Notes under the pieces: generated by a model
Databases searched by the model: none
What the model was told of the DNA's origin: nothing
What the model saw: only the letters and a program-made list of their open reading frames with translations
Shown here: positions 13,118 to 32,461 of the stretch, one piece after another
Position numbering within the stretch: position 1 is the first letter of the stretch
Layout: every line of letters begins with the position of its first letter
Virus record (IMG/VR): IMGVR_UViG_3300007960_008803
Location: 1-52,848 of that record
DNA length: 52,848 nt
Strand: one strand, 5' to 3'
DNA from: a virus
Translations under genes and position numbers: made by a program

Positions 13118-13647
13118 TGTCTAAAATTAATAATGAAAACTTTTGGCATAATCGTTTAGCTTATGCTAAAAGTCTAGCTAAAAATGATGAGATGATACAC
13201 TTTTCTGTTTTTAAAGTATCAAAAGAGTATTGGGATAAAATTCAAAAAAGTCATGAAAAAGTAATACTTGAGAACATTGATATTGATGGAGATAAGATTC
13301 TGGATATTGGCTGCGCTTTCGGTAGAGACTACATTAAAAATATGAAAAACTATGTTGGAATTGATTTTTCAAAAGATTTTATAAACGAAGCAAAAAGAAG
13401 ATTTCCTGATAAAGAATTTGTTGTGACCAAAATGGAAGACTTTGAAACAAAAGAAAAGTTTGATTGGGGAATTTTATCTAGTATCAAAAGAATGATAATA
13501 AGAGAAAATGGTCTTGAAGATTGGAATAAGAAAGAAGAACATTTAAAGAAAATATGTAAAAGAATTCTAGTTTTAGAATACACAGAAGCTGCTGAAGATG
13601 AGAACTATGTAGCAACAGAAATTATTGAAGGATATCATGATATATAA
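13117..13647 (+). CDS. Class I SAM-dependent methyltransferase
   Basis: This 176-residue protein has motif I KILDIGCAFGRDY (about residues 60-72), YVGIDFSKDFINEA as the strand that binds the SAM ribose, and FDWGILSSIKRM as the post-motif strand. The frame extends four codons upstream, but the ATG at 13117 overlapping the previous TAA is preferred. The protein is short, with little beyond the core fold, so the acceptor is unknown. Its place between a nucleotide-sugar dehydratase and an aminotransferase suggests a sugar substrate. Confidence 0.8.
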   Translation: MSKINNENFWHNRLAYAKSLAKNDEMIHFSVFKVSKEYWDKIQKSHEKVILENIDIDGDKILDIGCAFGRDYIKNMKNYVGIDFSKDFINEAKRRFPDKEFVVTKMEDFETKEKFDWGILSSIKRMIIRENGLEDWNKKEEHLKKICKRILVLEYTEAAEDENYVATEIIEGYHDI

Positions 13648-15858: not shown

Positions 15859-16273
15859 TGCTGCATTGGGAATTGCCCTATTAATAAGCTTAGGAAGCAA
15901 TTTAATAGCCTTTTATTACATTCGGGACCTACTAGGTAGGCTTGGCTGGTTAACGCAAAATTTGGCTAATTTAAGCGAATTAATAAGGGGTTTTCAAGAA
16001 CACATAAGAGGAGTTTATGAATTAGAAAAGTTTTATGGAGATGATGATGTAAAATTACTAGTTCAACACACGAATGATTTGATAGAGGTCATGGATGATT
16101 ATTTGGAAGTCGGTCTTGATTCTGAATTAATCGAGGAAGATTTAACAGAGGACATAACAAATGACACAAAGACGAAGAAAGACAGAGAACAAAAAGATGT
16201 ACTTTACTCAGACTCACGAGGACGCGATTCTGAAGTATTGCGATCCGGCTACAACATACCTGGAGAAATGTAA
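15848..16273 (+). CDS. Single-span membrane protein of unknown function
   Basis: The 141-residue product from ATG 15848 (AGGA at 15835-15838) begins MMIDAALGIALLISLGSNLI, one N-terminal membrane segment, then a helical soluble region and an acidic tail (EEDLTEDITND). It overlaps the previous gene by 11 bases. Its last 113 bases overlap the late sigma factor gene in another frame. The tail past the overlap point is low-complexity and may be little constrained. Role unknown. Confidence 0.7.
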   Translation: MMIDAALGIALLISLGSNLIAFYYIRDLLGRLGWLTQNLANLSELIRGFQEHIRGVYELEKFYGDDDVKLLVQHTNDLIEVMDDYLEVGLDSELIEEDLTEDITNDTKTKKDREQKDVLYSDSRGRDSEVLRSGYNIPGEM

Positions 16274-16859
16274 TTTATATGAAAATTTAATCCAACCAGC
16301 TTTTAATGAAATGGTTGATAAGATAGTTTTTACTTATAGATTCACAACACTCCCTAACATTGAAGAATTAAGAGATGACTGCAAAGTATGGCTAACTACC
16401 ATCTTAGCAAAATACGATCCAAATCGTGGATCAAAAGCATTTTCTTATTTTTCAGTAATAACCAAAAACTGGTTTATTGCACAAGTAAAAAAGAATTCTA
16501 AAAGAGCTAAACGAGAAGTAGATTACGAATCAGCTGATGCTGAATTGCAAAAATCCAGAATGACATCAGAAATAACATACATTCAAGATGAAATTGAAAA
16601 AGAATTTTGGGAAAATCTAAATAAAGAAATTGATTCTTGGGATTCAAAAAGCATGAATGAGAATGAAAAAAAAGTTTTAGATGCAATAAAAATATTAATA
16701 AATTCAGTTAACGAAATTGATATTTTAAACAAAAAAGCTGTTTATCTTTATCTTCGAGAGCTAACAGGATTTTCAACAAAACAAATTGTTTCTCAATTAA
16801 ATAAACTAAGAAAGAGATACAAAATGTTTAAAGATAACTGGGACGAAGGTAAAATTTAG
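16161..16859 (+). CDS. 55: Late-transcription sigma factor, gp55-type
   Basis: This is a 232-residue protein. After an N-terminal helix set (QPAFNEMVDKIVFTYRF) comes the sigma region 2-like core, YDPNRGSKAFSYFSVITKNW (about residues 91-110), and KKNSKRAKREVDYES. A C-terminal helix-turn-helix-like part (VYLYLRELTGFSTKQIVSQL) follows. The aromatic/basic core is what gp55-type sigma factors of marine T4-like phages use to recognise the -10 element of late promoters. The start at 16161 has AGAGGA upstream and lies 113 bases inside the preceding gene; a second ATG at 16197 is possible but has a poorer site. It probably directs the tail genes that follow, perhaps through the CTATTTATT motif. Confidence 0.82.
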   Translation: MTQRRRKTENKKMYFTQTHEDAILKYCDPATTYLEKCNLYENLIQPAFNEMVDKIVFTYRFTTLPNIEELRDDCKVWLTTILAKYDPNRGSKAFSYFSVITKNWFIAQVKKNSKRAKREVDYESADAELQKSRMTSEITYIQDEIEKEFWENLNKEIDSWDSKSMNENEKKVLDAIKILINSVNEIDILNKKAVYLYLRELTGFSTKQIVSQLNKLRKRYKMFKDNWDEGKI

Positions 16860-16876: not shown

Positions 16877-17164
16877 ATGTCAAAAAAACTAGATGAAATA
16901 ATACAAAAAACACTTGCCAACATAGAGGAAGATCGTTTGGTTACTCGAGATTTACTCGAGGATGCTATGGAATATCTTGCAAAAGATGAACATCGTCATA
17001 GAGAAATTGGTCTTACTTTAGCTAAGTATGTTGAAACCCTTCAACGTTCAAATGAACAAATGGTGAAGGTTGCTTCTCTTATTCAAAAAGAAGAAAAGAA
17101 AGAGGATGGGATCTCGAAAGAAGAGATGGATAATTTATTCTCTGCGATTGCGGAGAAAGATTAA
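16877..17164 (+). CDS. Small helical phage protein (95 aa), unknown
   Basis: The product is almost entirely helical and charged: a repeated Leu/Ile pattern (DEIIQKTLANIEEDR), HRHREIGLTLAKYVETLQRS, and an acidic C-terminus (EEMDNLFSAIAEKD). The ATG at 16877 follows a 17-base gap with no recognisable Shine-Dalgarno site, unlike almost all other genes here. The following gene overlaps its stop by one base. Similar small proteins sit near late-sigma or hub genes in T4-like marine phages. Roles such as a late-transcription co-factor can be imagined, but nothing in the sequence shows one. Confidence 0.65.
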   Translation: MSKKLDEIIQKTLANIEEDRLVTRDLLEDAMEYLAKDEHRHREIGLTLAKYVETLQRSNEQMVKVASLIQKEEKKEDGISKEEMDNLFSAIAEKD

Positions 17165-18414
17165 TGGCTAAAACTTTTGATAGAATATCTACTTTTCTAG
17201 CCAAACCTAGAACAAGAGTAAAACACTCTAATGATAGAATTATAGAGTTAGAAACTAAAAAAGAACTTAATAAATTCTTAGGAAAGACACAATTTACAGC
17301 TAGAGTTGTTGGTTTACCTAGAATAGACGAAGGAGCTGTATTCACATTGGCTAGTTCTGCTAATGATGATTTAAATGAAAACATTGTTTATGTTAGACTA
17401 GACGAAATAGAAGATTATTTTTTACCTGATCCTTCTACTACAAAATTAGACGGAGCACAACAACTTATAGATTTAATCTTAGCGCACCCTGTAGCTGTTA
17501 TAGGACCAAATGTTACTGGTATCAAACTAGGCAGCTTAGTTGTTTGTGAATTTGATGAAAACCCTGGTAACCTAGGTAAACAAAGAGGATTAAAAGTAGT
17601 CGGATCTCTAGCTACATCTGACCAAGAAGAATATGCTGATTTGATAATGAAAAAATTATTAGCTTCTGAGCTAACTGCTGCACAATTAGCTATGGAGAAT
17701 GGTGGGTACCAACAACAATCTACAGTAGAAAATCCCAGTACTGAAGATTTTGTAGGACGTTATTCCCAAGCTTCAACAACAATTAAAAGATTTCTTGACG
17801 ACCTTGTTGTAATCATTAAAAACAATAATAGGAAAGATTTATTACCAATTAAAGTTGGATCTTTGTTTAGATCATTGGGAGATCAAGCTACAATAATGTG
17901 GGAAAATGTTGTTGAAGGAAAACAAGCAGCCAAAATGGGTTGGTTTGATACAACGTATAAACCGAATAAATCATATGCTTCTTATGTAGCAACTGCTACA
18001 ATAGGAACAAATTATGGATTTTACGGTACTGAGACAAAGAAAGGTGGTTATATGAGAAAATATATGCAGTATGAAGCCAAATTAGTATTACAAGATGGAA
18101 TTGATAAAAAAATAACTAAAACCGATGGAGTAAAGAAAATAACTGAGATATATGAAAAATATTTTAAAAATTATCAAATTGTCCCATCTAGACACAATCT
18201 TGGAGAAGCTGTAGATATCAAAACATCTAATGGCTCAAGAGCCGATATTCCTGCTAACGAATACACAACTCAACAAAAAGAAGATTTAAAAAAGTTTGCA
18301 AAACAATCAAAATATTGTACATTTGCAAATATTGAAAGTTTAGATAAAAGAGGGGAGCATTTACACTGTAATGCTAAAAAAGAAGAAGGAGGTAGCCATG
18401 GCTCGGATATATAA
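17164..18414 (+). CDS. gp5-like baseplate hub protein with C-terminal M15 peptidase (tail lysin)
   Basis: In this 416-residue protein, residues of about 40-150 look like the OB-fold domain of T4 gp5 (FTARVVGLP; VYVRLDEIEDYF; GSLVVCEFDENPGNLGKQRG). Residues of about 320-405 carry the metallopeptidase M15 (VanY/D-Ala-D-Ala carboxypeptidase) motif: SRHNLGEAVDI (H344, D351) and GEHLHC (E398, H401). T4 gp5 uses a lysozyme to open peptidoglycan; here a peptide-cleaving domain would do that job. Context supports it: a spike-region protein follows, then gp25 and gp6. The start codon overlaps the previous stop (TAATG) with GGAG upstream. The M15 call is firm; the hub assignment is inferred. Confidence 0.8.
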   Translation: MAKTFDRISTFLAKPRTRVKHSNDRIIELETKKELNKFLGKTQFTARVVGLPRIDEGAVFTLASSANDDLNENIVYVRLDEIEDYFLPDPSTTKLDGAQQLIDLILAHPVAVIGPNVTGIKLGSLVVCEFDENPGNLGKQRGLKVVGSLATSDQEEYADLIMKKLLASELTAAQLAMENGGYQQQSTVENPSTEDFVGRYSQASTTIKRFLDDLVVIIKNNNRKDLLPIKVGSLFRSLGDQATIMWENVVEGKQAAKMGWFDTTYKPNKSYASYVATATIGTNYGFYGTETKKGGYMRKYMQYEAKLVLQDGIDKKITKTDGVKKITEIYEKYFKNYQIVPSRHNLGEAVDIKTSNGSRADIPANEYTTQQKEDLKKFAKQSKYCTFANIESLDKRGEHLHCNAKKEEGGSHGSDI

Positions 18415-19405
18415 TAAAACAGAAGAGTTTTTTAAAAAAGAAGTCGCAGAAGGAACACAAAGACCTGGAATTCTTCATAATGCTTTTAAGGAAAAGATGC
18501 CTACATTTGAAAAAGCAGGTTGCGAGTTTGTCTATCCAGATGTCAATTATGCAGTTGATGGTGGTGGAGATACAAAGATAAATGCTAATATTGTAATAGG
18601 TAGAGATAGGCCATCTCACTTAATGTCAGGATACGGAAAGATTGCCGGCCCTCCATGTGCTTCAATTGATCTTGTTGCCGGAAGAATGTCTGGAGCTAAT
18701 AGGAAAAAAGGAGCAGTTAAGAAATATCTAGATGTGATAGATAGAGATACTGTTGTTGGAAATAATTTTGCCCTAGATGCTTCAAGGATCTATATTTCTC
18801 AAAAATGTGACATTGACCATTACTTTGGACTACCAGAAGGAAAATTTGGAAGACCAAAGGGTGAAGCTGGAATTGGTATTAAATCTGATCATGTAAGAAT
18901 GATTGGAAGAAATTCAGTCAAAATATTTGCAGGAGGATCACAGTTCGAAAACCTAGGTTTAAAAGGAGAACTTGATTCAAATGGAGATAAATTAATTGAC
19001 CCAAGAATTGAATTCATAACAGGAGACGGACAAGATTTACAACCAATTGTTCGAGGCAATAACTTGGTATTCTTACTAGATGAGATTTTGAATCAACTAT
19101 CTTCTTTACAACAAGCTTTTCTTTTGCAAAATAAAAATATGGCAAAACTAAAAACTGTTTTATCAACACATTTTCATGTTGGAGGTGGTGCTGGAGTTGT
19201 GGTTGTTGGACCTGATCCGATTTTAGCTACAGCAGCTTTGTCTGATGTTCCAAAAGATCTTTTAAAAATAACAGATAATATAACAAAATCTTTGAATTTT
19301 GAAATTTTAAAATTAAATTATCTTGGAATCGGAGATCCTGATAATCCAACATTAAGGTTGAAAACAAGAAAAAACATACTTAGCAGAACAGTACATTCAT
19401 CATAA
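18398..19405 (+). CDS. Putative baseplate/spike-region structural protein
   Basis: The 335-residue protein starts at ATG 18398, which has a perfect GAAGGAGG site and overlaps the peptidase gene by 17 bases. It contains a glycine-rich, beta-like middle region (HVRMIGRNSVKIFAGG; IEFITGDGQDLQPIVRGNN), which could be part of a beta-helical spike or needle. A helical segment (LDEILNQLSSLQQAFLLQNK) and the segment HFHVGGGAGVVVVGPD follow. The immediate partner of the tail lysin in T4-like phages is the central spike, so a hub or spike role is likely. I do not recognise a named family. Confidence 0.65.
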   Translation: MARIYNKTEEFFKKEVAEGTQRPGILHNAFKEKMPTFEKAGCEFVYPDVNYAVDGGGDTKINANIVIGRDRPSHLMSGYGKIAGPPCASIDLVAGRMSGANRKKGAVKKYLDVIDRDTVVGNNFALDASRIYISQKCDIDHYFGLPEGKFGRPKGEAGIGIKSDHVRMIGRNSVKIFAGGSQFENLGLKGELDSNGDKLIDPRIEFITGDGQDLQPIVRGNNLVFLLDEILNQLSSLQQAFLLQNKNMAKLKTVLSTHFHVGGGAGVVVVGPDPILATAALSDVPKDLLKITDNITKSLNFEILKLNYLGIGDPDNPTLRLKTRKNILSRTVHSS

Positions 19406-19414: not shown

Positions 19415-22400
19415 ATGGCAGAACAAGGATTACCATTAACAACTACGGTCACTCAGGTGGTTACAGCTTTGGAACAATATGTAGACATTGGAAAAAACTC
19501 TGGCAGCCCAGATGATTTTATTAGAATTTATATTAAACCTCGTCAAGGTACTAGTTCACAAAATCACTTTTCTGATCAAGACGGTGATGGCTTAATAGAT
19601 GGTTTAGATGGAGCTCCAACGGGCTACGATGATACGCCACTTTATGTTAAGATAAGGTTTGTAAAGAGAGGAAGAAATGAAATAAAAATAGAACATTTTT
19701 ATGAATCAACAGACTTTACGTATAATACTTTAGTTATTGTAGTAAAATTTGATGGTGGAACTTCCGGAACTAATTATTCTCAATTAATGAGAAGAATAGA
19801 AGACTATTCAGCAGCTGAGTTTGTAAACGGAGGACAAAATTTCTATTTTCATTGTACAATATTTGGAAACAATCAATCTTTATTACCTTATAATAATAGT
19901 GTTGGAAATGGTAATCCAATGTTTGAAAATGATTTTCAAATTAAAACCTATGAAATAACAGAAGAGTTAACAACAACAACTGTGGACGATTCTTATTATA
20001 CAGCAGAGGCAAACACCCAATCGTACACAGAGCCTGTTATCTCTTATTCTATAGAAGATCCGGATGGTGTTTCATCAACATTCGCAGATCTTCAAAAAGA
20101 TATTTGTATCAAAGAACCAGTTGTTGATGAATTTGGATTAAATCAAAATCCTGATCTCAAAAGAATTTGCCCAACTTGTATCCCTAATCCAGACTTTATT
20201 CCTCCTGATTGGAGATATGAAACAATTTGGTTGAATGAGAAGACATGTAATTGGACTGTTCGAGTAAGATCAGAAGAACTTTTTTCTGAAGTAGCAAATA
20301 ATCCACAATTAAGAGAAAAATATGTAAGAAAAGGAATAGTAGATATTTTAGGATATTTGAACAAACAGATCATCGACCAAGATATATGCTGGAATCCTCC
20401 GGAAAACGCATCAGAATCTTGTGCCCAAAGACTACCTCAATCAATTATCAATCAATACCTTGAAATCTATCAAGTTCCAACAGGAAATGGTGATGGTTCA
20501 ACTTTCACTGTTTATCGTATGAATCCTTCGATTTATGACAATTACCAAATCAGAAACCCAATAGCTTTAGAATTGTTCGGAATGGCGGGAAGAATAAACC
20601 CTTCTTCTACTTCATCTGAAGGTGTTCCTTCGGATAATGCTAAAGCTCATATTGAGATCGTTGTTCCTGCTAATTTGATTAACTTAATACCTCAAGATTA
20701 TCTCGCAGAAGAATCAGAAGACCAACAGCAAGAGTTAGAAAGTGTTGAAGAAGTAACTTTCAGGGGCCCTACAATTAAAAGAACATTTAAAAAAACGTTG
20801 CCAAAGTTATTCAAAACGTATTCTGAATATCAATCATTTTACAAGAAAACAGAAGGCGGACATTTGAGGATTGGTACTGACTTTGATCAAGAAACACCAG
20901 ATACAAAGTTGTATTATTTTATTAAGTACGAAAAGCAATTTAAACAATTTTATTCTGATTTAAAAAACCTCTTAGGAGAAAATAATTATAAACTTTACTC
21001 AGATGAATATGGCTCAAGCGCTTCTTACAAATCAAACTCAAAGTACAGTGGTGGACTCACACAAAAACTAGCTGGTTCTGGTGTAAAATATCGAGAAGCT
21101 GTTGAGGTAAAGATAATATTTGATAAAAGTGATGAGTCTAATCCATTCAAAATAAGATCAGTAAAAGCGAAGTACGCTGGTTGCCCGTTTTACAGATGTG
21201 GTGTTGGTTTGAATGCATTTAAAGAAAAATATAACAATAGACCAACTCTCATGGCTTATGTTTCCAAAGCAAATGAAATGATGAGGGACATTGATAATTC
21301 CAGACAACTACCAGCTTGGAAAGATTTTGGAGTTAAATATACTTCACCGGAATTAACCTTTGTTTCCGGAGACCCTGATGGTAATCCAGACGCAGACAGT
21401 TGTTTGGATCAAAACGAAAGTACTTTTAATGATCTCGTACTAGGAGCTGAATTATCTTTTTCAAAAGCCGTAGAATACGCTTTCAATTCATTAAACTGTA
21501 GAGATTTTGAAAATTATGATAAAGATGAATACAAGAAGATTATGGGAGGACTAAAAAATGGTTCTTTATCACCTGCTATAAACATTTATGCTCAAGAAGA
21601 ACTAGAAGCTTACAACAAAGCCTTACAAATACAAAAAGATTATTGGAAGTTAGCTACTGAGGCAACTTCTCCTATTGCTAAGTTTTATAAATCATTAACA
21701 AATGAACAAACGAGAGATAAAGGATTCTTTGAGAGATTAACTGGAAAAACAATAGAAGAAGCTGTTGCTAATTTAAAAAACAAAAGCTCTCGAGAAGAGT
21801 TTGTTGGAGAACTTATTGAGAAGATAAACCCTTGTAATTGGGAATCTTTAACTTTGGATATAATTAATTGTTTGTTAAAAGGACTAAACCCAGCTGAAGC
21901 TTTACAAACAGCAGTAAAAAGCTTGCTTAACTCTCAAGATCCTCAATCTTGGGAAAAAATATTTATTGGTCTAACACCTGAGCAACAACAAAAAATAAAA
22001 GAAGAAATACAAAACAATTTTGGAAATCTTCCAACACCTTGGGAATTTAAACAACAACAAGAGAAAAAAGGTGTTGTAAAAATAAACGATTATGAAGCCC
22101 AACGGCAACCTCCGCAAAATCCCGGAGACCTAACACAACAAGAAAACGCACAACTTCTTGATTCTTTACAAGATACTGATGATCAAATTTTGCAACTCGA
22201 AGAGCAAATAAGAGAAAATAACAATAAAATTAATTCTTACAGACCCATCATTGGAGATATGTTTATTATTAATTCAAAGCCAATAATAGGTGAATACACA
22301 TCTGAAGATAAAGAAAATGAAAAATCAGAATTTATGTTTTTGAAAAGTATATCTGATAAAGATATTTTTCTATTATTTTACACAGAAGAGGAAATTCCAA

Positions 22401-25400
22401 ATACGGTTATAAAATTTGATGAATTTTACAATTATTTAATTAATGAAGTTTCTATTTTAGAATCAGAAATACTCAACTACAATAATTCAATTTCTCAACT
22501 TAAAATACAAAAATCAAATACTACTAACGATGTAATTCAAGGACTAGAAGACGATAGGTTTAGAAATGACGTAAATGCTTACGAACAAGCTGTTCAAAGA
22601 GTTGCAAAGGTTCTTTTAGAATCTTACACACAAGCATTAATAAATTCTTTTTCAATTGAAGAATTAAGAGAGTTAATTGATAGCATTCCCGGATCTGAGA
22701 TATTTGCCACAGTTGTTGCAACAGCATCTTGCCCTAATACATCATCAATAGACGAGTTTCTAGATGAGGTTGTTGGAGGAATAGAACTAAATCCATGTAT
22801 GGGAAAAAATGCTTGGTATTTTCCTGATATTCCCACTTTACCTGGTTTTGCTTGGCTCGATGTGTTAAAGTTTATGTTAAATAAATTTATCGAAAAGATA
22901 GTGAAATCAATCTTCGCAATATTGACCAAATATCTTCTAAAGACATTGCAAAAGATTTTAGCAAGAGCTTGTGATTTATTATCAGGTGTTGGTAGAACCT
23001 TGTTAGGAAATGACGATACAGGCTTGTTAGACGCCATTGCTGACGCTTTCTGCGAAGGAGATAGATTTACTCCCTTTGGAGAAACTCAAGAGGATTTAGG
23101 AGCAATTTCGGACGCTACAACAACACTTCAAGATTTTGTTTATCGTTACAGCACGCAGAAGATAGATAAAGAACCTGTTGTAGATTGGGCAACAGCTGTA
23201 AGTCAAAACATCAATTCAAGTCAATTTTTGAACATATTTCTTGAAGGGGCTCCTCAAGGCTCTCCTTTGTTTGATTTAATCTGGGAAGCAACACAAGAAA
23301 CCGAAATGTCTAATATTCTAAGAACTGAAGAAGACTTGGAAGAACTAATAAACTTGATAGGCAGTTATCTAGATGAAGACCAAAAAGCTACAATAATGGG
23401 CTTGTTGGAAAATCAATATGAAACATTTAATACATCAGAAGATGGCGATACAACTTATGCAGAGTTTTGTAAAAGATATTTATGCTTAGAAACAGACACT
23501 GGTTTTACTCCCGGTACTGATCCTGGTGTTGCCATTGGTTTTGATTTAGAAGATTTATTTGATTCATTTTTAAATGGACCCGATAGTGAATTTGAAGAAG
23601 AGTTTAGTAAAATATCACTAGATCCCGGTGGTGATCCTTTCTGTGATGATTTAAACGATCCAGACGACCCAATGGAAATAGAAGGGTCTTCATTGATGTC
23701 ACAATTACCACCAGAACTTAAAGACTTTCAAAAAGAATTAGCTGACTCTGTATTTGCTGATTTAGAATCGGCATACATCTCAGATACAATTGAGGGAAGA
23801 AATTCGTTTTTTAATAATGTCTTGGCTGATCAAGATAATGTACCATTAGTTAGAGGAACTATTTCATCACATGAAGCAAGAGTTGAGAGAAAGATATTGT
23901 TCCCGAATGCAGCCAACACAGTTGAAGACCATCAAGACAAGTACGATGATGCAAAAAATTTTCTAAGAAGAATAATGCATTTATTTGATTTTAAAAATGA
24001 AGATGGTGGAGTTAGAACTAGTAAGGCTGATGGTGATTACCCAACACCAACAAACTTATTCCCATCGACCGTTGGAGCTTGGTTGAGAAAACAAAGTTCA
24101 AATTTTGTCTTTAACGCTGATTACAAAACAAGAATTTATCTAGAAGAAGAAACATCAAGAATAGTTTCTAAAAAAGAATGGAAAAGACTTGGATTTACCA
24201 GTAATAATATTGAATCTTTCAAAAGATTTAAACAAAAACCTGATTTAAGGTTATCTTATCGGGATAGAAATGGTGGAGATCACTTTACTTGGGGATTTGA
24301 CTTAAATTACAATTCAGTATATCTGGAAGAAAGAAACGAAGATGAAGCATTTTATAATACATCAATTGCGCCATCATATGAATTAGAGATAAACGAATTT
24401 ACCGCAACCGCTCCTCCATCAGGATTTAAATCAGCACTATTAAAGCTTTTACCATCTGTATTACAAACAACCTATGAGATTGATGAGGAGACACTATTAC
24501 AACTTCAAGTTCCTTTCAATTTGTCTGGATTTGAGGAATTGTACGAAAAATACAAAGAAGACATCCTTGTTGTTAAAATAGATAAAGATTCTTCTGTTGG
24601 AAGAAAAAGTCCTCAAGAAGCAGCATTTATCAATTTTCTATTAGACAATCCTGAAAGAAAAGTGATTATCAATGTTGGTCAACAGTTTAAAGAAGAAGCT
24701 GGCTTGAGTGATAACTTGGCAACTTCTGAGGTCACTTTAGCTTTTGGTAAGTTTAATTCTTTGCCAAATAGACTTTACGGCAAAATGAAAGACATGTTTG
24801 CAAAAAAACTAATTCATGGGATTTATTCTGCTTCTCGAGAAGGAGATTCTAATTCTTTCTTATTTGGATACACAAAGGATTCTGAAATAAATTATCAAGA
24901 TTTATTGTATGTAGACCCAACCGCTGATCCAAAAAACAGTGCAACTTGGAAATATTCTTACCGAGAACAAGACAAAGTATTAGGAAAATCAGCAACAGAA
25001 AATAAGAGAGTTGTGTTCTTAGATCCTGAGGTTTATGGTGGAACTTATAAAAAACCAAAGATTTATATTCATCCTCATCCTTACAAAGGATGGCTTGGTA
25101 TTATGCAAGCATTTAATCCTGAAATGGATGGTTGTTCTCCAAAACGTTCTGGCTGGTTGTTTTTAGGAGAAATTTCTGAGAGAGTTAATAAGCTAGAAAA
25201 CTCTTTGAAAAAAGACAAAAGATTAGAATACGATCCTGATTGTGTTAAAAAAGCACCATATGATTTAATAGCTGATTCTTCAACACACGCATATCTAGAT
25301 GGTATTGTTACTTCGACTATCAGAACTTATATAGTAGAAAATATTTTAAGAACCATACCAACTCTAGGACAATTAAGGTTTAATTCACAAAACTTTGATA

Positions 25401-27517
25401 CAGGTATGGGCCTATTTCTGATTAATAGGATGAAAGAAGAGATGAAAGACTTTCCAAATAATCGATTGTCTGGAAATATTTCCAAGCTGAGATATTGGTA
25501 TCTATTTTTAGAACAAATGGTCCAAACAGTTGAGAGAAGAATTATAACTGGTGAAATCATAAAAGATGAGAAATTAGAAGAATTATTTGCTAAAATACTA
25601 GAAGTAAAAACCTCTTATTATTATCCTTCAAAAAGAGATAGAAAAATATTCAAAAGAATAACTAAAATTGCTTGGAATAGCGACGGTGTAGTAGATTATA
25701 TGCTTTATGATTATGGCCAAGGTGCTGTAAAAACCTTGAGAGAAGGAGATCCATTATATTCAAAATTGTCTAACTTTATTGATGCGATTTCTTTTAATGC
25801 ATTTGGTCCAAGCTTTAGACAAGTGCTTAAAAATATAACTGATTTTAATTTTAAAGTTAGAAAGATAAAATTAAAAGAATTGAGAATGTACACTAAAATT
25901 TATGACATTTACAGAAGTGAAGAAATAGCCACACAGATATCATCTTATTTGGTCTTGAATGAATTTAACTCTTATCAATACAAAATACAAAAATATCTAC
26001 CAGAAGAACCTTATATACAAGATTTGAACAAATTTGTATTAAATCCAAAATCCGGATTAACTATTGGGCCTCCAATAAATGTCGGAACTGTAGATGGAGA
26101 ATATACTGATTCAATTGAGAAAGAATTATATGGAGACGTTGTTTCTGTTGTTGATGATCCAATGACACAGCATCCATTAGAAAACTTATCACCTTTCATG
26201 GATGGAATACAAAAACAAACACTAAAAGTATTTGGTGGATTTTATTTAGAAAAATATGTTATTGTAATTCCAAAGAAAGAAGTAAAAAGTAAAGACTTTC
26301 AGGATCAATTCTCGGATGTAAGTAATAGGCCAATTTCAGTTGAAAAATTTGCTGAGGTTTTTGGCGCTTTCAAACAATCAACTAAATATTCAGAAGAAAC
26401 TGGTGAGCTTTTTATTTCTGACTTGTTTGGAAATGCTGTTAGAGAAGAAGAAGGGTATTCTGGATCAATCGGAATAAGATTTGGAGTTAGACTGAGCTAT
26501 CTACCTCCAGAAGGATTTGATCCAAGATCAGAAGATTTTGATAATGATTACTTTAGAAACATCAGAGGTTTTAGAGGTGTTCATTATTACAAAAATATTC
26601 CTAGTGAATTTGATTCTGAATCTTTTAAATATCCAATACCATTGGTGAATTTTGAAGAAGATATTACTGACTACAAGATAAAAAATGTATCTCAATTTGA
26701 GATTGACAATTTGTTGAAATGTTATATTGATAAACTAGCAGAGAAGCCAGAGTACAAGTTCTTAATGAACTACATTTTTAATGTCAAAGGTTTTGCAACC
26801 ATGTCATCAATTTACAGTTACTATGGTTTTCCTGATTCTATCGGAGAAGATCCGGGAGAAAGACCTGATCCTTCTAGAGAGTCAAATAAAACTTGGATAA
26901 GTTTGATTATGAAGAAAACGAAAATGAAGAATTATGGATTATTTAAAAAATACTATGATGTTCAAAATTTCAACAAAGAAGAGCAAACAGATCCAAAACA
27001 CTCAGATGCTTTTAGAGGAAGAAGTAAACCAACTTTAGATAAAAACCTAAGTGACAATATTAGATGGTGGCAGAGAAAAAGGTTTTATGAACGTCCTTTT
27101 GATGAAGAAGGGAGAGAATGTGCTGATGGAGCATTGGCAGCATTTGATCAAAATCCTGGTAAACCTCCAAGAACAGATCAAAACACCTACAGTACCTCAA
27201 CTGTTGTTGAAGAGGAAAATCCACTAAAGAAAATTGATCCAACTCCACAAGAAGCAGAGAAAGCATTACAAGAGAAATTTATTGATCAAAGTCAAAACAT
27301 TGCTTTCACAATACCTAGTTATGATGAAGAGGAAGAACAACAAGAAGAACAAGCAACAGTGGCTTCTCAAACAGAGACTACTATTGCAACAAACTCTGTT
27401 GCTTTTGCAAGTGAAGTTTATCAAGAAGCACAAGAAGAAGAGCCTTTGTTTGGAGAAGAAGATAAAGTAGAAGGAAGTACGATTAATCAATTTAGCAACA
27501 TAACAAAGAATTTGTAG
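19415..27517 (+). CDS. Giant virion structural protein (2700 aa), probable baseplate component
   Basis: One uninterrupted frame of 2700 codons starts with AAGGA and ATG 19415. Near residues 54-65, DQDGDGLIDGLD is a DxDxDGxxDxxD calcium-binding-type loop. Several cysteine clusters occur in the first 500 residues (RICPTCIPNPDF; DICWNPPENASESC). Coiled-coil-like sequence lies at about 907-942. A long hydrophobic/amphipathic block lies at about 1146-1190 (KFMLNKFIEKIVKSIFAILT). The last 80 residues are Gln/Glu-rich and acidic. Much of it is not heptad-like, so a simple tape measure is unlikely. Position between the hub lysin and gp25 suggests a baseplate or tail-tip structure. No family recognised. 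Confidence 0.85.
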   Translation: MAEQGLPLTTTVTQVVTALEQYVDIGKNSGSPDDFIRIYIKPRQGTSSQNHFSDQDGDGLIDGLDGAPTGYDDTPLYVKIRFVKRGRNEIKIEHFYESTDFTYNTLVIVVKFDGGTSGTNYSQLMRRIEDYSAAEFVNGGQNFYFHCTIFGNNQSLLPYNNSVGNGNPMFENDFQIKTYEITEELTTTTVDDSYYTAEANTQSYTEPVISYSIEDPDGVSSTFADLQKDICIKEPVVDEFGLNQNPDLKRICPTCIPNPDFIPPDWRYETIWLNEKTCNWTVRVRSEELFSEVANNPQLREKYVRKGIVDILGYLNKQIIDQDICWNPPENASESCAQRLPQSIINQYLEIYQVPTGNGDGSTFTVYRMNPSIYDNYQIRNPIALELFGMAGRINPSSTSSEGVPSDNAKAHIEIVVPANLINLIPQDYLAEESEDQQQELESVEEVTFRGPTIKRTFKKTLPKLFKTYSEYQSFYKKTEGGHLRIGTDFDQETPDTKLYYFIKYEKQFKQFYSDLKNLLGENNYKLYSDEYGSSASYKSNSKYSGGLTQKLAGSGVKYREAVEVKIIFDKSDESNPFKIRSVKAKYAGCPFYRCGVGLNAFKEKYNNRPTLMAYVSKANEMMRDIDNSRQLPAWKDFGVKYTSPELTFVSGDPDGNPDADSCLDQNESTFNDLVLGAELSFSKAVEYAFNSLNCRDFENYDKDEYKKIMGGLKNGSLSPAINIYAQEELEAYNKALQIQKDYWKLATEATSPIAKFYKSLTNEQTRDKGFFERLTGKTIEEAVANLKNKSSREEFVGELIEKINPCNWESLTLDIINCLLKGLNPAEALQTAVKSLLNSQDPQSWEKIFIGLTPEQQQKIKEEIQNNFGNLPTPWEFKQQQEKKGVVKINDYEAQRQPPQNPGDLTQQENAQLLDSLQDTDDQILQLEEQIRENNNKINSYRPIIGDMFIINSKPIIGEYTSEDKENEKSEFMFLKSISDKDIFLLFYTEEEIPNTVIKFDEFYNYLINEVSILESEILNYNNSISQLKIQKSNTTNDVIQGLEDDRFRNDVNAYEQAVQRVAKVLLESYTQALINSFSIEELRELIDSIPGSEIFATVVATASCPNTSSIDEFLDEVVGGIELNPCMGKNAWYFPDIPTLPGFAWLDVLKFMLNKFIEKIVKSIFAILTKYLLKTLQKILARACDLLSGVGRTLLGNDDTGLLDAIADAFCEGDRFTPFGETQEDLGAISDATTTLQDFVYRYSTQKIDKEPVVDWATAVSQNINSSQFLNIFLEGAPQGSPLFDLIWEATQETEMSNILRTEEDLEELINLIGSYLDEDQKATIMGLLENQYETFNTSEDGDTTYAEFCKRYLCLETDTGFTPGTDPGVAIGFDLEDLFDSFLNGPDSEFEEEFSKISLDPGGDPFCDDLNDPDDPMEIEGSSLMSQLPPELKDFQKELADSVFADLESAYISDTIEGRNSFFNNVLADQDNVPLVRGTISSHEARVERKILFPNAANTVEDHQDKYDDAKNFLRRIMHLFDFKNEDGGVRTSKADGDYPTPTNLFPSTVGAWLRKQSSNFVFNADYKTRIYLEEETSRIVSKKEWKRLGFTSNNIESFKRFKQKPDLRLSYRDRNGGDHFTWGFDLNYNSVYLEERNEDEAFYNTSIAPSYELEINEFTATAPPSGFKSALLKLLPSVLQTTYEIDEETLLQLQVPFNLSGFEELYEKYKEDILVVKIDKDSSVGRKSPQEAAFINFLLDNPERKVIINVGQQFKEEAGLSDNLATSEVTLAFGKFNSLPNRLYGKMKDMFAKKLIHGIYSASREGDSNSFLFGYTKDSEINYQDLLYVDPTADPKNSATWKYSYREQDKVLGKSATENKRVVFLDPEVYGGTYKKPKIYIHPHPYKGWLGIMQAFNPEMDGCSPKRSGWLFLGEISERVNKLENSLKKDKRLEYDPDCVKKAPYDLIADSSTHAYLDGIVTSTIRTYIVENILRTIPTLGQLRFNSQNFDTGMGLFLINRMKEEMKDFPNNRLSGNISKLRYWYLFLEQMVQTVERRIITGEIIKDEKLEELFAKILEVKTSYYYPSKRDRKIFKRITKIAWNSDGVVDYMLYDYGQGAVKTLREGDPLYSKLSNFIDAISFNAFGPSFRQVLKNITDFNFKVRKIKLKELRMYTKIYDIYRSEEIATQISSYLVLNEFNSYQYKIQKYLPEEPYIQDLNKFVLNPKSGLTIGPPINVGTVDGEYTDSIEKELYGDVVSVVDDPMTQHPLENLSPFMDGIQKQTLKVFGGFYLEKYVIVIPKKEVKSKDFQDQFSDVSNRPISVEKFAEVFGAFKQSTKYSEETGELFISDLFGNAVREEEGYSGSIGIRFGVRLSYLPPEGFDPRSEDFDNDYFRNIRGFRGVHYYKNIPSEFDSESFKYPIPLVNFEEDITDYKIKNVSQFEIDNLLKCYIDKLAEKPEYKFLMNYIFNVKGFATMSSIYSYYGFPDSIGEDPGERPDPSRESNKTWISLIMKKTKMKNYGLFKKYYDVQNFNKEEQTDPKHSDAFRGRSKPTLDKNLSDNIRWWQRKRFYERPFDEEGRECADGALAAFDQNPGKPPRTDQNTYSTSTVVEEENPLKKIDPTPQEAEKALQEKFIDQSQNIAFTIPSYDEEEEQQEEQATVASQTETTIATNSVAFASEVYQEAQEEEPLFGEEDKVEGSTINQFSNITKNL

Positions 27518-27527: not shown

Positions 27528-27950
27528 ATGTCGGTCAAAAATAATTATTTCGGAATATCAGCATTAAGAGATATTACAGTAAAAGTGCCATTGAACATTG
27601 AAGGTAATAATGTAGGCTACGAAACTTTAAACGAAGAAGAAATATCTGAGGTTATAAAGTTCAATTTAAAGTCAATAATTCTAACACATCCCGGAGAGCG
27701 TATGGATACCCGTTTTGGAGTTGGAATAAAGCGTTTTCTATTTGAACAAGCTGGTGATGAGCTTTACCAAACAGTACAATCTACAATATTTAATCAAATA
27801 AGAACATATATGCCTTGGTTGACTAATGTGAACGTTCAGGTTTTTGGAGAAGACAATGAAAGAAAACTATCTGTAGCAATAAAATACAAGTTGAATAGTC
27901 CCGAGATTGTGGATTATTTTGAACTTTCTCTTTCAATTGATGAATTATAA
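27528..27950 (+). CDS. 25: Baseplate wedge protein gp25 (GPW/gp25 family)
   Basis: This 140-residue protein matches gp25. It opens with NYFGISALRDITVKVPLN, then HPGERMDTRFGVGIKRFLFE (family signature, about residues 54-73), and ends with the TYMPWLTNVNV strand region. gp25-type proteins bind the sheath initiator end of baseplate wedges and are shared with R-type pyocins and type VI secretion (TssE). AGAGGA precedes the ATG. It is followed by gp6, its partner in the wedge core. Confidence 0.95.
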   Translation: MSVKNNYFGISALRDITVKVPLNIEGNNVGYETLNEEEISEVIKFNLKSIILTHPGERMDTRFGVGIKRFLFEQAGDELYQTVQSTIFNQIRTYMPWLTNVNVQVFGEDNERKLSVAIKYKLNSPEIVDYFELSLSIDEL

Positions 27951-27994: not shown

Positions 27995-29806
27995 ATGCCG
28001 AAGAACAAAAATATTCCAATAAAATACACCAGTAGAGACTTTAATTCAATAAAGAAAGACTTAATAGAACATGCTAAGAGATATTATCCTGATAACTATA
28101 ATGATTTCTCTGAGGCTTCCTTTGGATCTTTAATGTTTGACACCGTTTCGTACATAGGAGATGTATTATCTTATTATTTAGACTATTCAGTCAATGAATC
28201 ATTCTTAGATACAGCAATCGAGTTTCCAAATGTCAGAAGACATGCAAAGAACCTAGGTTATAATTTTACAGGAATACCTGTTGCTTTCGGTTCAGTTGCT
28301 TTATTCATTGAAGTACCAGCAAACTCAGATGGAAATGGACCAAATACATCATACATTCCGGTCCTTAAAAAAGGAGCTGAATTTCTTGGTGGCAATGGAA
28401 CAACTTACACTTTATTAGAAGACGTTAGGTTTGATAGACCAGAGAATGATATAATAGCAGTTAAATTTAACAATGTAACAGGTCAAGCAACTCATTATGC
28501 AATAAGATCTTTCGGTCAAGTTTCATCAGGTAAATCATTTACAGCTATTATTGATTTGTCTCAAGCAACATTTAAAAAATTTAGAAGAGTACAAGTAGGA
28601 GATAATACAATTTCTGAGATAATTGATGTAAGAGATGCCGAAGGAAATGTGTTTTATGAAGTTGACTTCTTATCTCAAGAAACAGTCTTTGTTGAAACAA
28701 CAAACCCTACAGCTTTATCAGACGGTGTTAGATCTATAATGAAGCCATATGTAACAGCCCGTAGATTTATCTTAGAACAAGACGATACAGGAACTTATAT
28801 ACAATTTGGTTTCGGATCAGACGACGATGACGATTCAGGACTTGCAGATCCATCTCAAGTAGCTGTTCAAATGCATGGCAAGAATTATGTTACAAGTAAA
28901 GCAATAGATCCAACAAAGCTATTAGGCACAGACAAGCTTGGGATATCTCCACAAGGAACAACACTAACAGTTACTTACAGAAAGAATGATGGTAATATTA
29001 CCAACGCAGGACCAAGAACAATTAAAGAGGTTTCTTTTTCGAATCTAGTATTTAGTAATCCTAACACTTTAGACAGTGGTCTTATCAATACTGTTAAGTC
29101 TAGTTTAGAAGTTATCAATGATGAACCGATAGTTGGTTCTTCTGTTGATTTTACAATAGATGAATTGAAAGTAAGGTCAAAGAACTTTTTTGCTTCTCAA
29201 AACAGAGCTGTTACCAAAATGGATTACGAAGCAATTGCTTACAATATGCCAACAAAATTTGGCCAAGTAAAAAGAGTTAATGTTATCAATAATCCTTTTG
29301 CTACTAATAAGAAGCTAGCTATTTACGTTGCTTCAATAGATAATCAAGGAGCATTTGTTCAAACAAATCAGGCAACAAAAAATAATTTAAAAAATTGGTT
29401 AAACCAGTATGCGTCGATAAATGATGTTATTGAGATATTTGATGCAAAGATTGTAAACTTTTCAATTGATTTTTCAATAATGACAGACAATAGATATGAT
29501 ACATCGACAGTATTGGCTAATGCTATCACAAGACTTAAGAATAAATATTCAGAAAAGTTTTACATTGGTGAACCGATCTATATTAACGACATCTACAATC
29601 TTCTCTCAAAAACAGAAGGTGTGATTGATGTTAAAGAAGTTAAGATTGAAAATAAAAACGCTTCAAACCACGGAACAGGATATTCAAATATTCAATTGGA
29701 AATGCAGGATATGATCTCACAAGATAGAACTTACTACAAGGCTCCAAAAAACGTAATATTTGAACTCAAGTTTCCGAATCAAGACATCAAAGGGAAAGCA
29801 AGATAA
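27995..29806 (+). CDS. 6: Baseplate wedge protein gp6 (J-like family)
   Basis: This 603-residue protein has the gp6/baseplate J-type N-terminus: IKYTSRDFNSIKKDLIEHAK, FGSLMFDTVSYIGDVLSYYL, then ESFLDTAIEFPNVRRHAKNL (roughly residues 7-88). The C-terminal half has the conserved RAVTKMDYEAIAYNMP and a final domain IYINDIYNLLSKTEGVIDV. gp6 forms the dimeric ring that joins baseplate wedges. A run of acidic residues (SDDDDD) lies near residue 270. Its stop overlaps the next ATG by one base. Confidence 0.93.
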   Translation: MPKNKNIPIKYTSRDFNSIKKDLIEHAKRYYPDNYNDFSEASFGSLMFDTVSYIGDVLSYYLDYSVNESFLDTAIEFPNVRRHAKNLGYNFTGIPVAFGSVALFIEVPANSDGNGPNTSYIPVLKKGAEFLGGNGTTYTLLEDVRFDRPENDIIAVKFNNVTGQATHYAIRSFGQVSSGKSFTAIIDLSQATFKKFRRVQVGDNTISEIIDVRDAEGNVFYEVDFLSQETVFVETTNPTALSDGVRSIMKPYVTARRFILEQDDTGTYIQFGFGSDDDDDSGLADPSQVAVQMHGKNYVTSKAIDPTKLLGTDKLGISPQGTTLTVTYRKNDGNITNAGPRTIKEVSFSNLVFSNPNTLDSGLINTVKSSLEVINDEPIVGSSVDFTIDELKVRSKNFFASQNRAVTKMDYEAIAYNMPTKFGQVKRVNVINNPFATNKKLAIYVASIDNQGAFVQTNQATKNNLKNWLNQYASINDVIEIFDAKIVNFSIDFSIMTDNRYDTSTVLANAITRLKNKYSEKFYIGEPIYINDIYNLLSKTEGVIDVKEVKIENKNASNHGTGYSNIQLEMQDMISQDRTYYKAPKNVIFELKFPNQDIKGKAR

Positions 29807-31227
29807 TGGCTATTAAAAAATACTTTGCAACAGCAGACAATACAATTTCCAATGCTTTTGATGAAACCCTTTTATCATCAAACAGAGCAACGGGCTCCAA
29901 TATGGGAGCTTCTGATATTTTAGAAGTCTTTCAAATTTATGGACAGGCTACAACCAGCTCATCAGAGCTTTCAAGAATTTTGATTCAATTTGACACAGAT
30001 CAAATATCCTCGGATAGAACAGCCGGTAAAATACCTGCTGCTGGTTCTGTAAACTTTTATCTCAATCTCTACAACGCTGAGCATTCCTCGACATTACCTG
30101 AAAATTTTGATCTCACAATCTCTGCTGTGTCTCAATCATGGCAAGAAGGTAACGGTCTTGACATGGTTAACTACACCGACAAAACATACAATGTAACTGG
30201 TTCTAACTGGAATAGCAGAGGAACTGAAGGACTTTGGGATTCTGCCGGAGGAGACTATCATGCTTCTCCAACATTTAATAAAAACTTCCCAGAAGGCTAT
30301 GAAAATCTTTCTGTTGACGTCACATCTCTTGTAGAAGAATGGCTTGACGGAACAAAAGACAATTATGGTTTTGGAATAAAACTTAAAGATAACTTGGAAT
30401 CAGCAACAAAGTCTTATTACACAAAAAAATTCTTTGCAAGAGGAACCGAGTTCTTTTTCAACAGACCAAGTTTGGAAGCTAAGTGGAATGATTCTATAAC
30501 GGACGATAGAGGTGCTTTCTTTGCGTCTTCTTCTCTAGCCCCTGCCAATGACAACCTAAACACTTTGTACCTCTACAATCGCATTAGAGGGCGATTAAGA
30601 GACATACCTGCTGTAGGTACTGATGACATCGAAGTGTCGCTTTACACAGAAGCTGGAGGAACTCAAATTGGTTCTACATTCACTGGTTCACATGTTTCAA
30701 CTGGAATTTACAAATGCAGTGTTTATGCAGATACAGATGACACGTCAATAATTGACGTTTGGCATTCAGGTGGAGTTGAATATCACACAGGTTCAATTTC
30801 GGTTTTATCAGAAAATGCGGAGATAATAGATGAAAACACAAGATATCTTCTTTCAATTCCAAACTTGAACAAAGAATACAGAAATACAGATAAAGTAAGA
30901 TTTAAGTTATATGTAAGACCAAAGAATTGGTCTCCGACAATTTACACAGTTGCAAAAGCGACACCAGAATCGACAGTTATTCATTCAGCTTCATATGAGA
31001 TTTGCAGATCAATTGATAACTTAGTGGTTATTCCGCACGATACAGGGTCTAATTTATCGACTAAATTATCATACAATGTTAGTGGTAACTACTTTGACAT
31101 AGATATGTCTTACTTCGAGCCAGGCTATGATTACGATATAAAGTTTGCTTTTTATGATGAATATCTTGAAAGCTGGAATCACCAACCTTATCAATTTAAA
31201 TTTAAAGTGAGAGAAGATGAGTATTAA
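29806..31227 (+). CDS. Virion protein with DNRLRE-type domain
   Basis: Of its 473 residues, about 1-220 form a beta-sandwich of the DNRLRE type: YFATADNTISNAF, then SRILIQFDTDQI, the Trp-rich core AVSQSWQEGNGLDMVNYTD, and VDVTSLVEEWLDGTKDNYGF. The rest contains further beta-rich repeats (IEVSLYTEAGGTQIGSTFTG; GIYKCSVYADTDD). DNRLRE modules occur in cell-surface and carbohydrate-related proteins. In a phage tail operon this suggests a peripheral baseplate or host-contact part. It occupies the place that gp7/gp8 hold next to gp6 in T4, but I see no clear similarity to them. Confidence 0.75.
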   Translation: MAIKKYFATADNTISNAFDETLLSSNRATGSNMGASDILEVFQIYGQATTSSSELSRILIQFDTDQISSDRTAGKIPAAGSVNFYLNLYNAEHSSTLPENFDLTISAVSQSWQEGNGLDMVNYTDKTYNVTGSNWNSRGTEGLWDSAGGDYHASPTFNKNFPEGYENLSVDVTSLVEEWLDGTKDNYGFGIKLKDNLESATKSYYTKKFFARGTEFFFNRPSLEAKWNDSITDDRGAFFASSSLAPANDNLNTLYLYNRIRGRLRDIPAVGTDDIEVSLYTEAGGTQIGSTFTGSHVSTGIYKCSVYADTDDTSIIDVWHSGGVEYHTGSISVLSENAEIIDENTRYLLSIPNLNKEYRNTDKVRFKLYVRPKNWSPTIYTVAKATPESTVIHSASYEICRSIDNLVVIPHDTGSNLSTKLSYNVSGNYFDIDMSYFEPGYDYDIKFAFYDEYLESWNHQPYQFKFKVREDEY

Positions 31228-32461
31228 AGATTTTTTTTATAAAAAAGAAGTTGTTCTTGAAGACCAATCAAAACTAACTTCTTCGGTTGAATCTGCGGAT
31301 TTAATTGAGGAAATAAGAGAACAAAACAAGACTTTTGTTCCTGATGTAGATTTTTCTGATCCAAAAAACTTCGCAAGATTTGGTTCCGCTAAAGAATATT
31401 ACGAAGGATCTATCAAAAGAATTTATGAACAATATCCTTACGATGGCTCCGAAGCAGAAAAGCTAAGCTTCTATAACGATTCAACGTTTCTCGACCAATG
31501 GTTATTTGACAACAAATATCCAAAATCTACTGGTTATGCAGTCTTCTCAGCAGATGGTTGGGGAACTGCAACAACAATTAACGACTACGGTAAACCAAAT
31601 GTTTTGGAATATATATACTCTGCCGGTGGATTGCGAGAAGCTTCTCTTTATCAACACACAGGTTCTGATACAATTAGTTCAGGACAACTAAAGAATGTTT
31701 TTGACAAAGGCGTTAAACACGATTCGGATAAGAACAGAACTTTAAATTACAGAATGAAGATGGACGATGGTCTCACAATTCAATTTTGGATGAAAAAAGA
31801 CGAATTCCTTCCTTCCTCTACAAGACGAGAAGTCATTCTTGACCTTTGGAATGGCGTAACCACATCTGGTTCGCATGATTACGGACGTTTGATACTTGAA
31901 ATGTCTGCTTCCGATAAGCAAGAGTCTGCGCTAAGATTGACACTGTATTCAGGTTCTTATGGTATTGTTGATCAACCAATCGCACTTAGTTCTTATGGAT
32001 CAGCGTCGATAGCAAATGGTGAATGGCAACACCACACAATCACAGTTAAAGCAGCTTCTCAAAATCTCGAGATAAGTTACTACAACAACGGTATCTTGAA
32101 CAGCGGTTCGACATACAGCACTACCAATACACTAGGTGAGATACCCAATAACATTAACGGATATCTTGGAGCCTTACAAACAGCTTCATATGGAAATGAT
32201 TATCATAATCAAGATATGGTAGGAGCAGGAAAACTTTCTGCTTCTCTCGACGATTTCAGATATTGGAAAAAAGAATTAGATGCCCAGTACATTAAAAACA
32301 CTTGGTTCTACCCAATTGGTGGAGGATCAAATTCTGATGATAACAGAACTTCACTTGGAGTTTATTACAAGTTTAACGAAGGTGTTGTAGGAAATACAGC
32401 GTATGATGCGACCGTCTTGGATTATTCAGGAAGAATTGCAAACGGAACTTGGACAGGATAA
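31217..32461 (+). CDS. LamG/concanavalin-like virion protein ending at an in-frame TAA
   Basis: In this 414-residue protein, residues of about 185-400 form a LamG-like jelly roll: LTIQFWMKKDEF, GEWQHHTITV, SLDDFRYWKKELDAQYIKN, then the typical exit YYKFNEGVVGN and LDYSGRIANGTWTG. The TAA at 32459-32461 comes right there. The reading frame continues unbroken after the stop into the 1695-codon gene downstream, in the same phase. The peptide just after the stop (TTSSRNTGSAYVSASIL) reads as a natural continuation. The ATG at 31217 lies 11 bases inside the previous gene. It may be a free-standing protein, or the first part of a 2127-codon reading frame. Confidence 0.75.
   Translation: MSIKDFFYKKEVVLEDQSKLTSSVESADLIEEIREQNKTFVPDVDFSDPKNFARFGSAKEYYEGSIKRIYEQYPYDGSEAEKLSFYNDSTFLDQWLFDNKYPKSTGYAVFSADGWGTATTINDYGKPNVLEYIYSAGGLREASLYQHTGSDTISSGQLKNVFDKGVKHDSDKNRTLNYRMKMDDGLTIQFWMKKDEFLPSSTRREVILDLWNGVTTSGSHDYGRLILEMSASDKQESALRLTLYSGSYGIVDQPIALSSYGSASIANGEWQHHTITVKAASQNLEISYYNNGILNSGSTYSTTNTLGEIPNNINGYLGALQTASYGNDYHNQDMVGAGKLSASLDDFRYWKKELDAQYIKNTWFYPIGGGSNSDDNRTSLGVYYKFNEGVVGNTAYDATVLDYSGRIANGTWTG
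32459..32461 (+). other. In-frame TAA dividing a possible 2127-codon reading frame
   Basis: Bases 31217-37597 are one frame except for this TAA. The context is GGA TAA ACA ACT. No Shine-Dalgarno site lies between it and the next usable starts (TTG 32510, ATG 32579), while nearly all other genes here have one. The context does not match the CARYYA readthrough signal. A point error (for example TAT to TAA), a recent nonsense mutation, readthrough or re-initiation all remain possible. Confidence 0.8.

What the first reader, a model, noticed from the sequence alone, without database searches (positions are those of the whole stretch)
19415..27517. 2700-residue virion protein with an internal hydrophobic block
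It is the largest gene in the window and unassigned. A run of about 45 hydrophobic/amphipathic residues near 1146-1190 is unusual for a baseplate protein and could insert into the host membrane or pack in a core. Much of the rest is not coiled coil, so a tape-measure role is not obvious.
Basis: partly seen in the sequence, partly recalled or inferred. Interest (0 to 1): 0.5.

Follow-up and report, generated by a model that had tools for sequence, protein, structure and literature searches.

The report
Giant baseplate-locus protein of uncultured phages
The largest gene in this phage fragment encodes a 2,700-residue protein of an apparently undescribed family found between tail-spike-like and baseplate genes in a group of uncultured phages; it is probably a baseplate part rather than a tape measure or fibre, and its hydrophobic stretch is a conserved helix, not a clear membrane anchor.

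Summary
The ORF is real: 19415-27517, 2,700 aa. Pfam, PHROGs, PDB sequences and phage records gave no significant match. Two uncultured contigs hold orthologues (90%, 67%); others came through gp6. In 24 of 24 related loci with the neighbouring ~330-aa spike-like gene, the order is that gene, a giant ORF (20 loci, 1,296-2,809 aa) or two to three large ORFs (4 loci), a gp25-size ORF, gp6; 23 of 24 carry at least one giant module. Module H was absent from seven other records. In L030 the module groups lie in three end-to-end genes, so the giant looks like a fusion. Three relatives with a sheath match (one over cut-off) have a tape-measure-like gene near the sheath, 54-66 kb from the giant; that label is my inference. 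The hydrophobic run is within chance here (175 of 500 shuffles), yet lies in a conserved block that is the hydrophobic maximum in 10 of 12 members. Best reading, inferred from location: an inner-baseplate (hub-to-wedge) scaffold. Against it: models were poor, no fold matched, the family diverges fast, no virion data. About 180 N-terminal residues look swapped between close relatives.

The parts
19415..27517 (+). giant protein, 2,700 aa
   Evidence: intact ORF; relatives L003 90%, L002 67% identical; no significant family match
19444..19980 (+). N-terminal region that differs as a block from L003 (about residues 11-189)
   Evidence: blastn of window against L003 stops at 19443 (86.7% identity before) and resumes at 19981 (92.6% after); codon-aligned identity 0.44-0.50 inside against 0.54-0.71 to L002
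20159..20398 (+). module B with CPTCxPNP and LNExTC (about residues 249-328)
   Evidence: profile hits in 11 of 98 loci; Cys 252, 255 and 278 all present in 7 of 12 rows of A10
21638..22201 (+). module D (about residues 742-929)
   Evidence: profile hits in 10 of 98 loci
22574..23056 (+). module E (residues 1054-1214), holds the hydrophobic helix
   Evidence: profile hits in 12 of 98 loci; alignment A8
22850..22984 (+). hydrophobic/amphipathic run, residues 1146-1190
24818..25609 (+). module H (about residues 1802-2065), the most widely found block
   Evidence: profile hits in 36 of 98 loci; alignment A6 of 34 rows
26180..27124 (+). module J (residues 2256-2570)
   Evidence: profile hits in 26 of 98 loci; alignment A7
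18371..19405 (+). ~330-aa gene next to the giant; spike role inferred
   Evidence: 19-member alignment A11; precedes the giant region in 24 of 24 related loci where found; weak profile match to outgroup proteins L079 (E 1.3e-4) and L098 (E 3.1e-4) whose repeats read like a spike to me; no PDB match, no phage-record match
17164..18414 (+). 416-aa ORF, weak VanY peptidase match; candidate tail peptidase, inferred
   Evidence: PF02557 E 8.4e-4, 19.6 bits against a cut-off of 25; no PHROG match
27528..27950 (+). gp25 baseplate wedge protein
   Evidence: PF04965 E 1.7e-8; phrog_261 E 1.5e-12
27995..29806 (+). gp6 baseplate wedge protein
   Evidence: phrog_219 E 5.8e-21; 28-32% identity over 98-100% of its length in six phage records

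Best explanation
A structural protein of the inner baseplate of a group of uncultured, probably contractile-tailed phages, acting as a scaffold that joins the central spike to the gp25/gp6 wedge ring. It looks like a fusion of three module groups (B-D, E, H-J) that a relative encodes as separate neighbouring genes, so the modules probably sit together in equal number in the particle. The helix of module E is most likely packed inside that assembly. The variable N-terminus is an exposed, exchangeable domain. Shown: the family by profiles, gene order, modularity, block-wise N-terminal difference between close relatives, no module H in seven other records. Inferred: presence in the virion, place in the baseplate, scaffold role, packing of the helix, tape-measure and spike labels of neighbours and relatives.
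For: The ~330-aa gene was found in 26 of 98 loci; in the 24 of the window's group it is followed by the giant region, a gp25-size ORF and gp6 (gp25 was confirmed by family only in the window). Single ORF in 20 of 24, two ORFs in L016, L026, L027, three in L030; at least one module in 23 of 24 (none in L050). In L030, B+D, E and H+J fall in ORF1, ORF2, ORF3; ORF1/ORF2 abut and ORF2/ORF3 share ATGA. Module H: one copy in each of 5 group contigs (all five supplied rows to the profile, so presence is by construction) and none in 7 other records, three of them fragments of 53-97 kb. Group contigs G003, G004 and G005 have sheath and tape-measure-like genes away from the giant. N-terminal block difference.
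Against: No virion data. No fold match: nothing at E 0.001 in PDB for the C-half model, best VIA-align Z 4.3; models are poor (pTM 0.51 and 0.31). The family diverges fast (module H 11-37% identity to the window beyond the three closest) while gp6 stays at 40-54%: not what one expects of a core scaffold. Neighbourhood does not prove a baseplate place. The tape-measure-like gene carries no family match, is seen only in 3 of 18 records searched, and not in the 127-kb contig G006. I lowered this from 0.5 to 0.45 because the divergence argument had been left out.
Confidence: 0.45

Rival explanations
1. Membrane-active or ejected protein: conserved hydrophobic helices insert into the host membrane when the tail contracts and help form the DNA channel.
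For: Module E reaches KD19 1.6 in 7 of 12 members (highest 2.14 in L033); 25 of 41 ORFs with module H or J have at least one such segment, several in module H or near the C-terminus.
Against: The window protein, L003 and L002 have no segment of 1.6; in the window protein the run is within shuffles, and for 11 of 12 members shuffles reach the block's KD45 in 8 to 166 of 200. The 25 of 41 count has no shuffle control.
Confidence: 0.2
2. Baseplate-attached receptor-binding giant whose exchangeable N-terminus and inserted lectin domains bind the host.
For: N-terminal block difference; extensions of about 390-550 residues before module B in L013, L020, L054, L056 and nearly none in L010, L022; lectin-like stretch in L047 (Laminin_G_3 E 1.4e-5, 25.7 bits against a cut-off of 27.6); fast divergence of the family.
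Against: No fibre family in the window protein; a separate lectin-domain gene (31217-32461) and long unassigned ORFs (1,695 and 1,523 aa) downstream are other adsorption candidates.
Confidence: 0.15
3. Tape measure protein.
For: Long and variable in length, in a tail gene region; the window fragment itself has no sheath or tube gene among its family matches, so its own tape measure is not seen.
Against: In G004 two Ala/Gly-rich ORFs of 875 and 741 aa lie by the sheath and a phrog_150 hub gene; relatives of the first lie 2-4 kb from sheath matches in G003 and G005. In L030 the modules are separate genes. The label of those ORFs is inferred.
Confidence: 0.07
4. Non-virion assembly chaperone or scaffold of the baseplate.
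For: Lies among assembly genes; no structural match.
Against: Such a size would be unusual for a non-structural helper (general knowledge); the exchangeable N-terminus suggests outside selection (inference).
Confidence: 0.1

Closest known systems
UniProt A0A516M7H3 (viral protein in BFVD, no name in the table at hand)
   Same: The C-half model matches its second chunk (E 3.5e-29, 23% identity over 796 columns, TM 0.57) and the N-half model its first chunk (E 4.2e-19)
   Different: No function given; the N-half match has TM 0.17 from a model of pTM 0.31; that the two chunks form one long protein is read from their suffixes
T4 inner wedge gp53/gp25/gp6 (PMC3004832, passages read)
   Same: Gene neighbours are gp25 and gp6, which with gp53 surround the T4 hub
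   Different: No family match to gp53 or another wedge protein; gp53 is 23 kDa
Tape measure proteins (T4 gp29 type)
   Same: Large size, tail gene region
   Different: No family match; a separate tape-measure-like gene (inferred) in three relatives; modules separable
Small ORF upstream of the gp25-size ORF in outgroup loci (122-198 aa in the 19 loci listed)
   Same: Same position
   Different: A 17-protein profile of it shows no similarity to the modules (hhalign probability under 1%)

Membership tests
Tape measure protein | match to a tape-measure family | tested here: not met
   none in PHROGs at E 1 or Pfam at E 0.1
Tape measure protein | no other tape measure gene in the genome | tested here: inconclusive
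   tape-measure-like ORFs near sheath matches in G003, G004, G005, label inferred; sheath over the Pfam cut-off only in G004; window is a fragment
Tape measure protein | length sets tail length | not testable with these tools
   needs mutants and electron microscopy
T4-type baseplate wedge (gp53, gp7, gp8, gp10) | sequence match to a wedge family | tested here: not met
   34 members of module H give no wedge family in PHROGs
T4-type baseplate wedge (gp53, gp7, gp8, gp10) | encoded with wedge genes | tested here: met
   next to gp25 and gp6 in the window; next to a gp25-size ORF and gp6 in 24 of 24 loci with the ~330-aa gene
T4-type baseplate wedge (gp53, gp7, gp8, gp10) | shared fold | tested here: inconclusive
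   poor models; no significant PDB match for the C-half; N-half not searched in PDB
Tail fibre / tailspike | fibre or depolymerase family match | tested here: not met
   for the window protein; relative L047 has a lectin-like stretch just under the cut-off
Baseplate hub | hub family match | tested here: not met
   none; in G004 a phrog_150 'baseplate hub' gene lies by the sheath instead (E 1.1e-13)

The most novel reading that the evidence does not exclude
A new class of contractile-tail baseplate core: one fused giant, built from genes still separate in some relatives, has taken over several small T4-type baseplate parts in a group of uncultured phages, and carries conserved hydrophobic helices that are released into the host envelope on contraction.
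Probability: 0.12. Interest if true: 0.65.

Novelty: new variant of a known kind. Interest (0 to 1): 0.42.

Why it matters
The family marks a group of phages with no close relative among the 50,697 phage records searched by tblastn, and fills much of their baseplate locus without any assigned function. Fused and separate versions of the same modules give a natural map of which pieces act together, and the block-wise N-terminal difference between phages about 90% identical around it points to the part under outside selection. If the protein is a core baseplate part, the inner baseplate, usually thought well conserved, can be rebuilt around a group-specific giant.

Tried and rejected
Direct searches: PHROGs, Pfam and tblastn with the whole protein and with pieces at E 10 gave only one chance hit (E 7). 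Four viral scans with the protein or its alignments returned only L002 and the contig of L003 (L008 and L009 are that contig again). tblastn with relatives' pieces (L046 giant, L036 second ORF) gave no match. Structure: two AlphaFold2 jobs, both poor; PDB Foldseek rows begin at E 0.055 and look like noise (helical toxins and others); VIA-align best Z 4.3, designed helical bundles first. PDB profile searches of the giant, module H, the ~330-aa gene and the VanY-type gene gave nothing credible. The second ORFs of L023, L027, L036, L041, L045 lie where module J would be expected, but profile comparison with J is not significant (probability 1.2%), so I do not claim them as separate J genes. Small outgroup ORF: no similarity to the modules. 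The T4 late-promoter motif (recalled) gave no support: 1 match, 5.65 expected. Literature: six searches with listings, some capped; no title or abstract start in them described this family, and only three papers were opened. PMC12619734 (passages and section 12) reports large aquatic phages with gp25, gp6 and PhoH and no identified tape measure; whether they are this group was not tested. PMC3004832 and PMC5628999: passages only. NCBIfam and PADLOC were not searched; no tree was built, so 'group' means gp6 40-54% identical to the window's.

Full report
The observation. The window is a 52,848-base virus record. Upstream lie a late-sigma-like gene (16161-16859, phrog_234 E 5e-4), a 95-aa ORF, a 416-aa ORF with a weak VanY match and a 344-aa ORF; downstream gp25 and gp6. 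The giant has no significant match in PHROGs, Pfam, PDB sequences or phage records.

The hydrophobic block. Residues 1146-1190 read AWLDVLKFMLNKFIEKIVKSIFAILTKYLLKTLQKILARACDLLS: 8 K/R, 3 D/E, KD45 0.76. The protein's maxima are KD19 1.14 and KD45 0.85; 500 of 500 and 175 of 500 shuffles reach them. For this protein alone the block is not unusual and does not look transmembrane. In the family, module E was found in 12 of 98 loci (window, L003 and L002 are close kin). It holds the KD45 maximum in 10 of 12 (not in L010, L016), the KD19 maximum in 8 of 12, and reaches KD19 1.6 in 7 of 12. The control speaks partly against it: shuffles of each member reach the block's KD45 in 0 of 200 for L030, 8-12 of 200 for L052, L022 and L020, and 26-166 of 200 for the other eight. 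Cysteines 1106, 1128 and 1186 are kept in 9, 8 and 9 of the 12 rows of alignment A10; three rows have gaps there.

Finding relatives. Scans with the giant gave L003 (90% identity) and L002 (67%). L010-L058 have gp6 40-54% identical to the window's, L059-L089 30-33%. Upstream ORFs were listed for 68 of the 80. In L010-L058 the ORFs before the gp25-size ORF range from pieces cut by the contig end to 3,171 aa; L039, with 308 and 480 aa, is not a giant by size. In the 19 listed of the 31 loci L059-L089 a 122-198-aa ORF stands there (L068 has ORFs of 600 and 1,090 aa before it, without a match to the profiles). Iterated profiles, built from ORFs of at least 160 aa of L010-L058 and the three close kin, were run over ORFs of 98 loci, duplicates L008 and L009 and the later loci L101-L111 left out: module H 36, J 26, E 12, B 11, D 10 loci. 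Module H identity to the window falls to 11-37% beyond the closest three, so distant members rest on profiles, which can drift. A genome-contig scan gave 11 gp6 loci in metagenome bins; L091 carries H and J; bins of unlike bacteria give no host.

Gene order and fusion. A 19-member profile of the ~330-aa gene finds it in 26 of 98 loci. In all 24 of the window's group it is followed by the giant region, a gp25-size ORF and gp6; the other two, L079 and L098 (E 1.3e-4 and 3.1e-4), are outgroup loci with a 198-aa ORF and with 390- and 114-aa ORFs there. gp25 was identified by family only in the window. One ORF in 20 of 24 (1,296-2,809 aa, stop to stop); two in L016, L026 (793-aa part without module), L027; three in L030 (622, 593, 570 aa). 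L050 (1,296 aa) has no detected module; the other 23 have at least one. In L030, B+D, E and H+J fall one set per ORF; in L016 B and E are in different ORFs. L030 ORF1 and ORF2 abut and ORF2 and ORF3 share ATGA, as expected of separate genes; an assembly error cannot be excluded. Module H occurs once in each of five group contigs that supplied rows to the profile, and in none of seven other records: Mel-JY01, Immutovirus immuto, LR756508, P-SSM2 and three fragments.

Not the tape measure, probably. In G004, the 146.6-kb contig of L024, lie a sheath gene (phrog_23 E 3.4e-67), a phrog_150 'baseplate hub' gene (E 1.1e-13), Ala/Gly-rich ORFs of 875 and 741 aa, and a 1,156-aa ORF that reads hub-like to me but has no PHROG match; the giant is about 63-66 kb away. 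The 875-aa ORF matches in 3 of 18 records: its own, G003 and G005. The same three of 8 records gave sheath matches, only G004 over the cut-off; G003 has E 0.0154. In G003 and G005 the distance to the giant is about 54-55 kb. G006, 127 kb, gave neither sheath nor tape-measure match. The tape-measure label is my inference from composition and position; no family or phage record matched.

The N-terminus. Window and L003 are 86.7% identical in DNA up to 19443 and 92.6% from 19981; between, blastn finds nothing and codon-aligned identity is 0.44-0.50. L002, more distant overall, is 0.54-0.71 identical to the window there. Exchange is the simplest reading; very fast divergence is not excluded. Before module B, L010 and L022 have 17-28 residues, L013, L020, L054 and L056 about 390-550, without a match to the window's N-terminal profile. 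Five N-termini (L003, L013, L020, L054, L056) have no Pfam match; L047 has a Laminin_G_3-like stretch at residues 939-1074, just under the cut-off.

Structure. AlphaFold2 of residues 1770-2640 (14 sequences): pLDDT 61, pTM 0.51; of residues 240-1230 (12 sequences): pLDDT 52, pTM 0.31. No credible PDB match for the first; the second was not searched in PDB. A long relative is thus probably already in UniProt.

Mechanism. In T4, gp6, gp25 and gp53 surround the hub, and wedges join once gp53 binds (PMC3004832, passages). A modular protein encoded between a spike-like gene and gp25/gp6, and probably not tape measure or hub, is best read as a hub-to-wedge scaffold. Against this stands its fast divergence beside a gp6 of 40-54% identity. 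The helix is most simply a packed amphipathic helix; membrane action remains a serious rival. Nothing here has been tested in particles. On re-reading I lowered the best explanation to 0.45 and raised the receptor-binding rival to 0.15 and the tape-measure rival to 0.07, because the divergence and the weak sheath matches had not been told fully.

Noticed in passing
window 19444-19980; L003 8438-8986: Block-wise N-terminal difference between two phages otherwise about 90% identical here; the window type and L002 have a DxDGDG stretch (calcium-loop-like, recalled) that L003 lacks.
   Followed up: partly
L002 11019-11204: After the stop of the giant a 62-aa ORF matches residues ~2607-2663 of the giant profile (E about 1e-25), as if the C-terminal tail were partly duplicated.
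   Followed up: no
window 31217-32461: 414-aa protein with a Laminin_G_3 (ConA-like lectin) domain, E 1.7e-7, two genes after gp6: candidate adsorption protein.
   Followed up: no
window 4737-15432: Block of glycosyltransferase, methyltransferase, epimerase, aminotransferase and UDP-glucose dehydrogenase matches between PhoH/exonuclease genes and the tail genes.
   Followed up: no
window whole: TATAAATA occurs once against 5.65 expected from shuffles although a late-sigma-like gene is present.
   Followed up: partly
L107 301-5135 (contig of L024): Two adjacent tape-measure-like ORFs (875 and 741 aa), 27% identical over query residues 100-518: a possible duplicated tape measure.
   Followed up: partly
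L068 3962-9034: Outgroup-type gp6 locus with ORFs of 600 and 1,090 aa near the gp25-size ORF that do not match the giant profiles.
   Followed up: no
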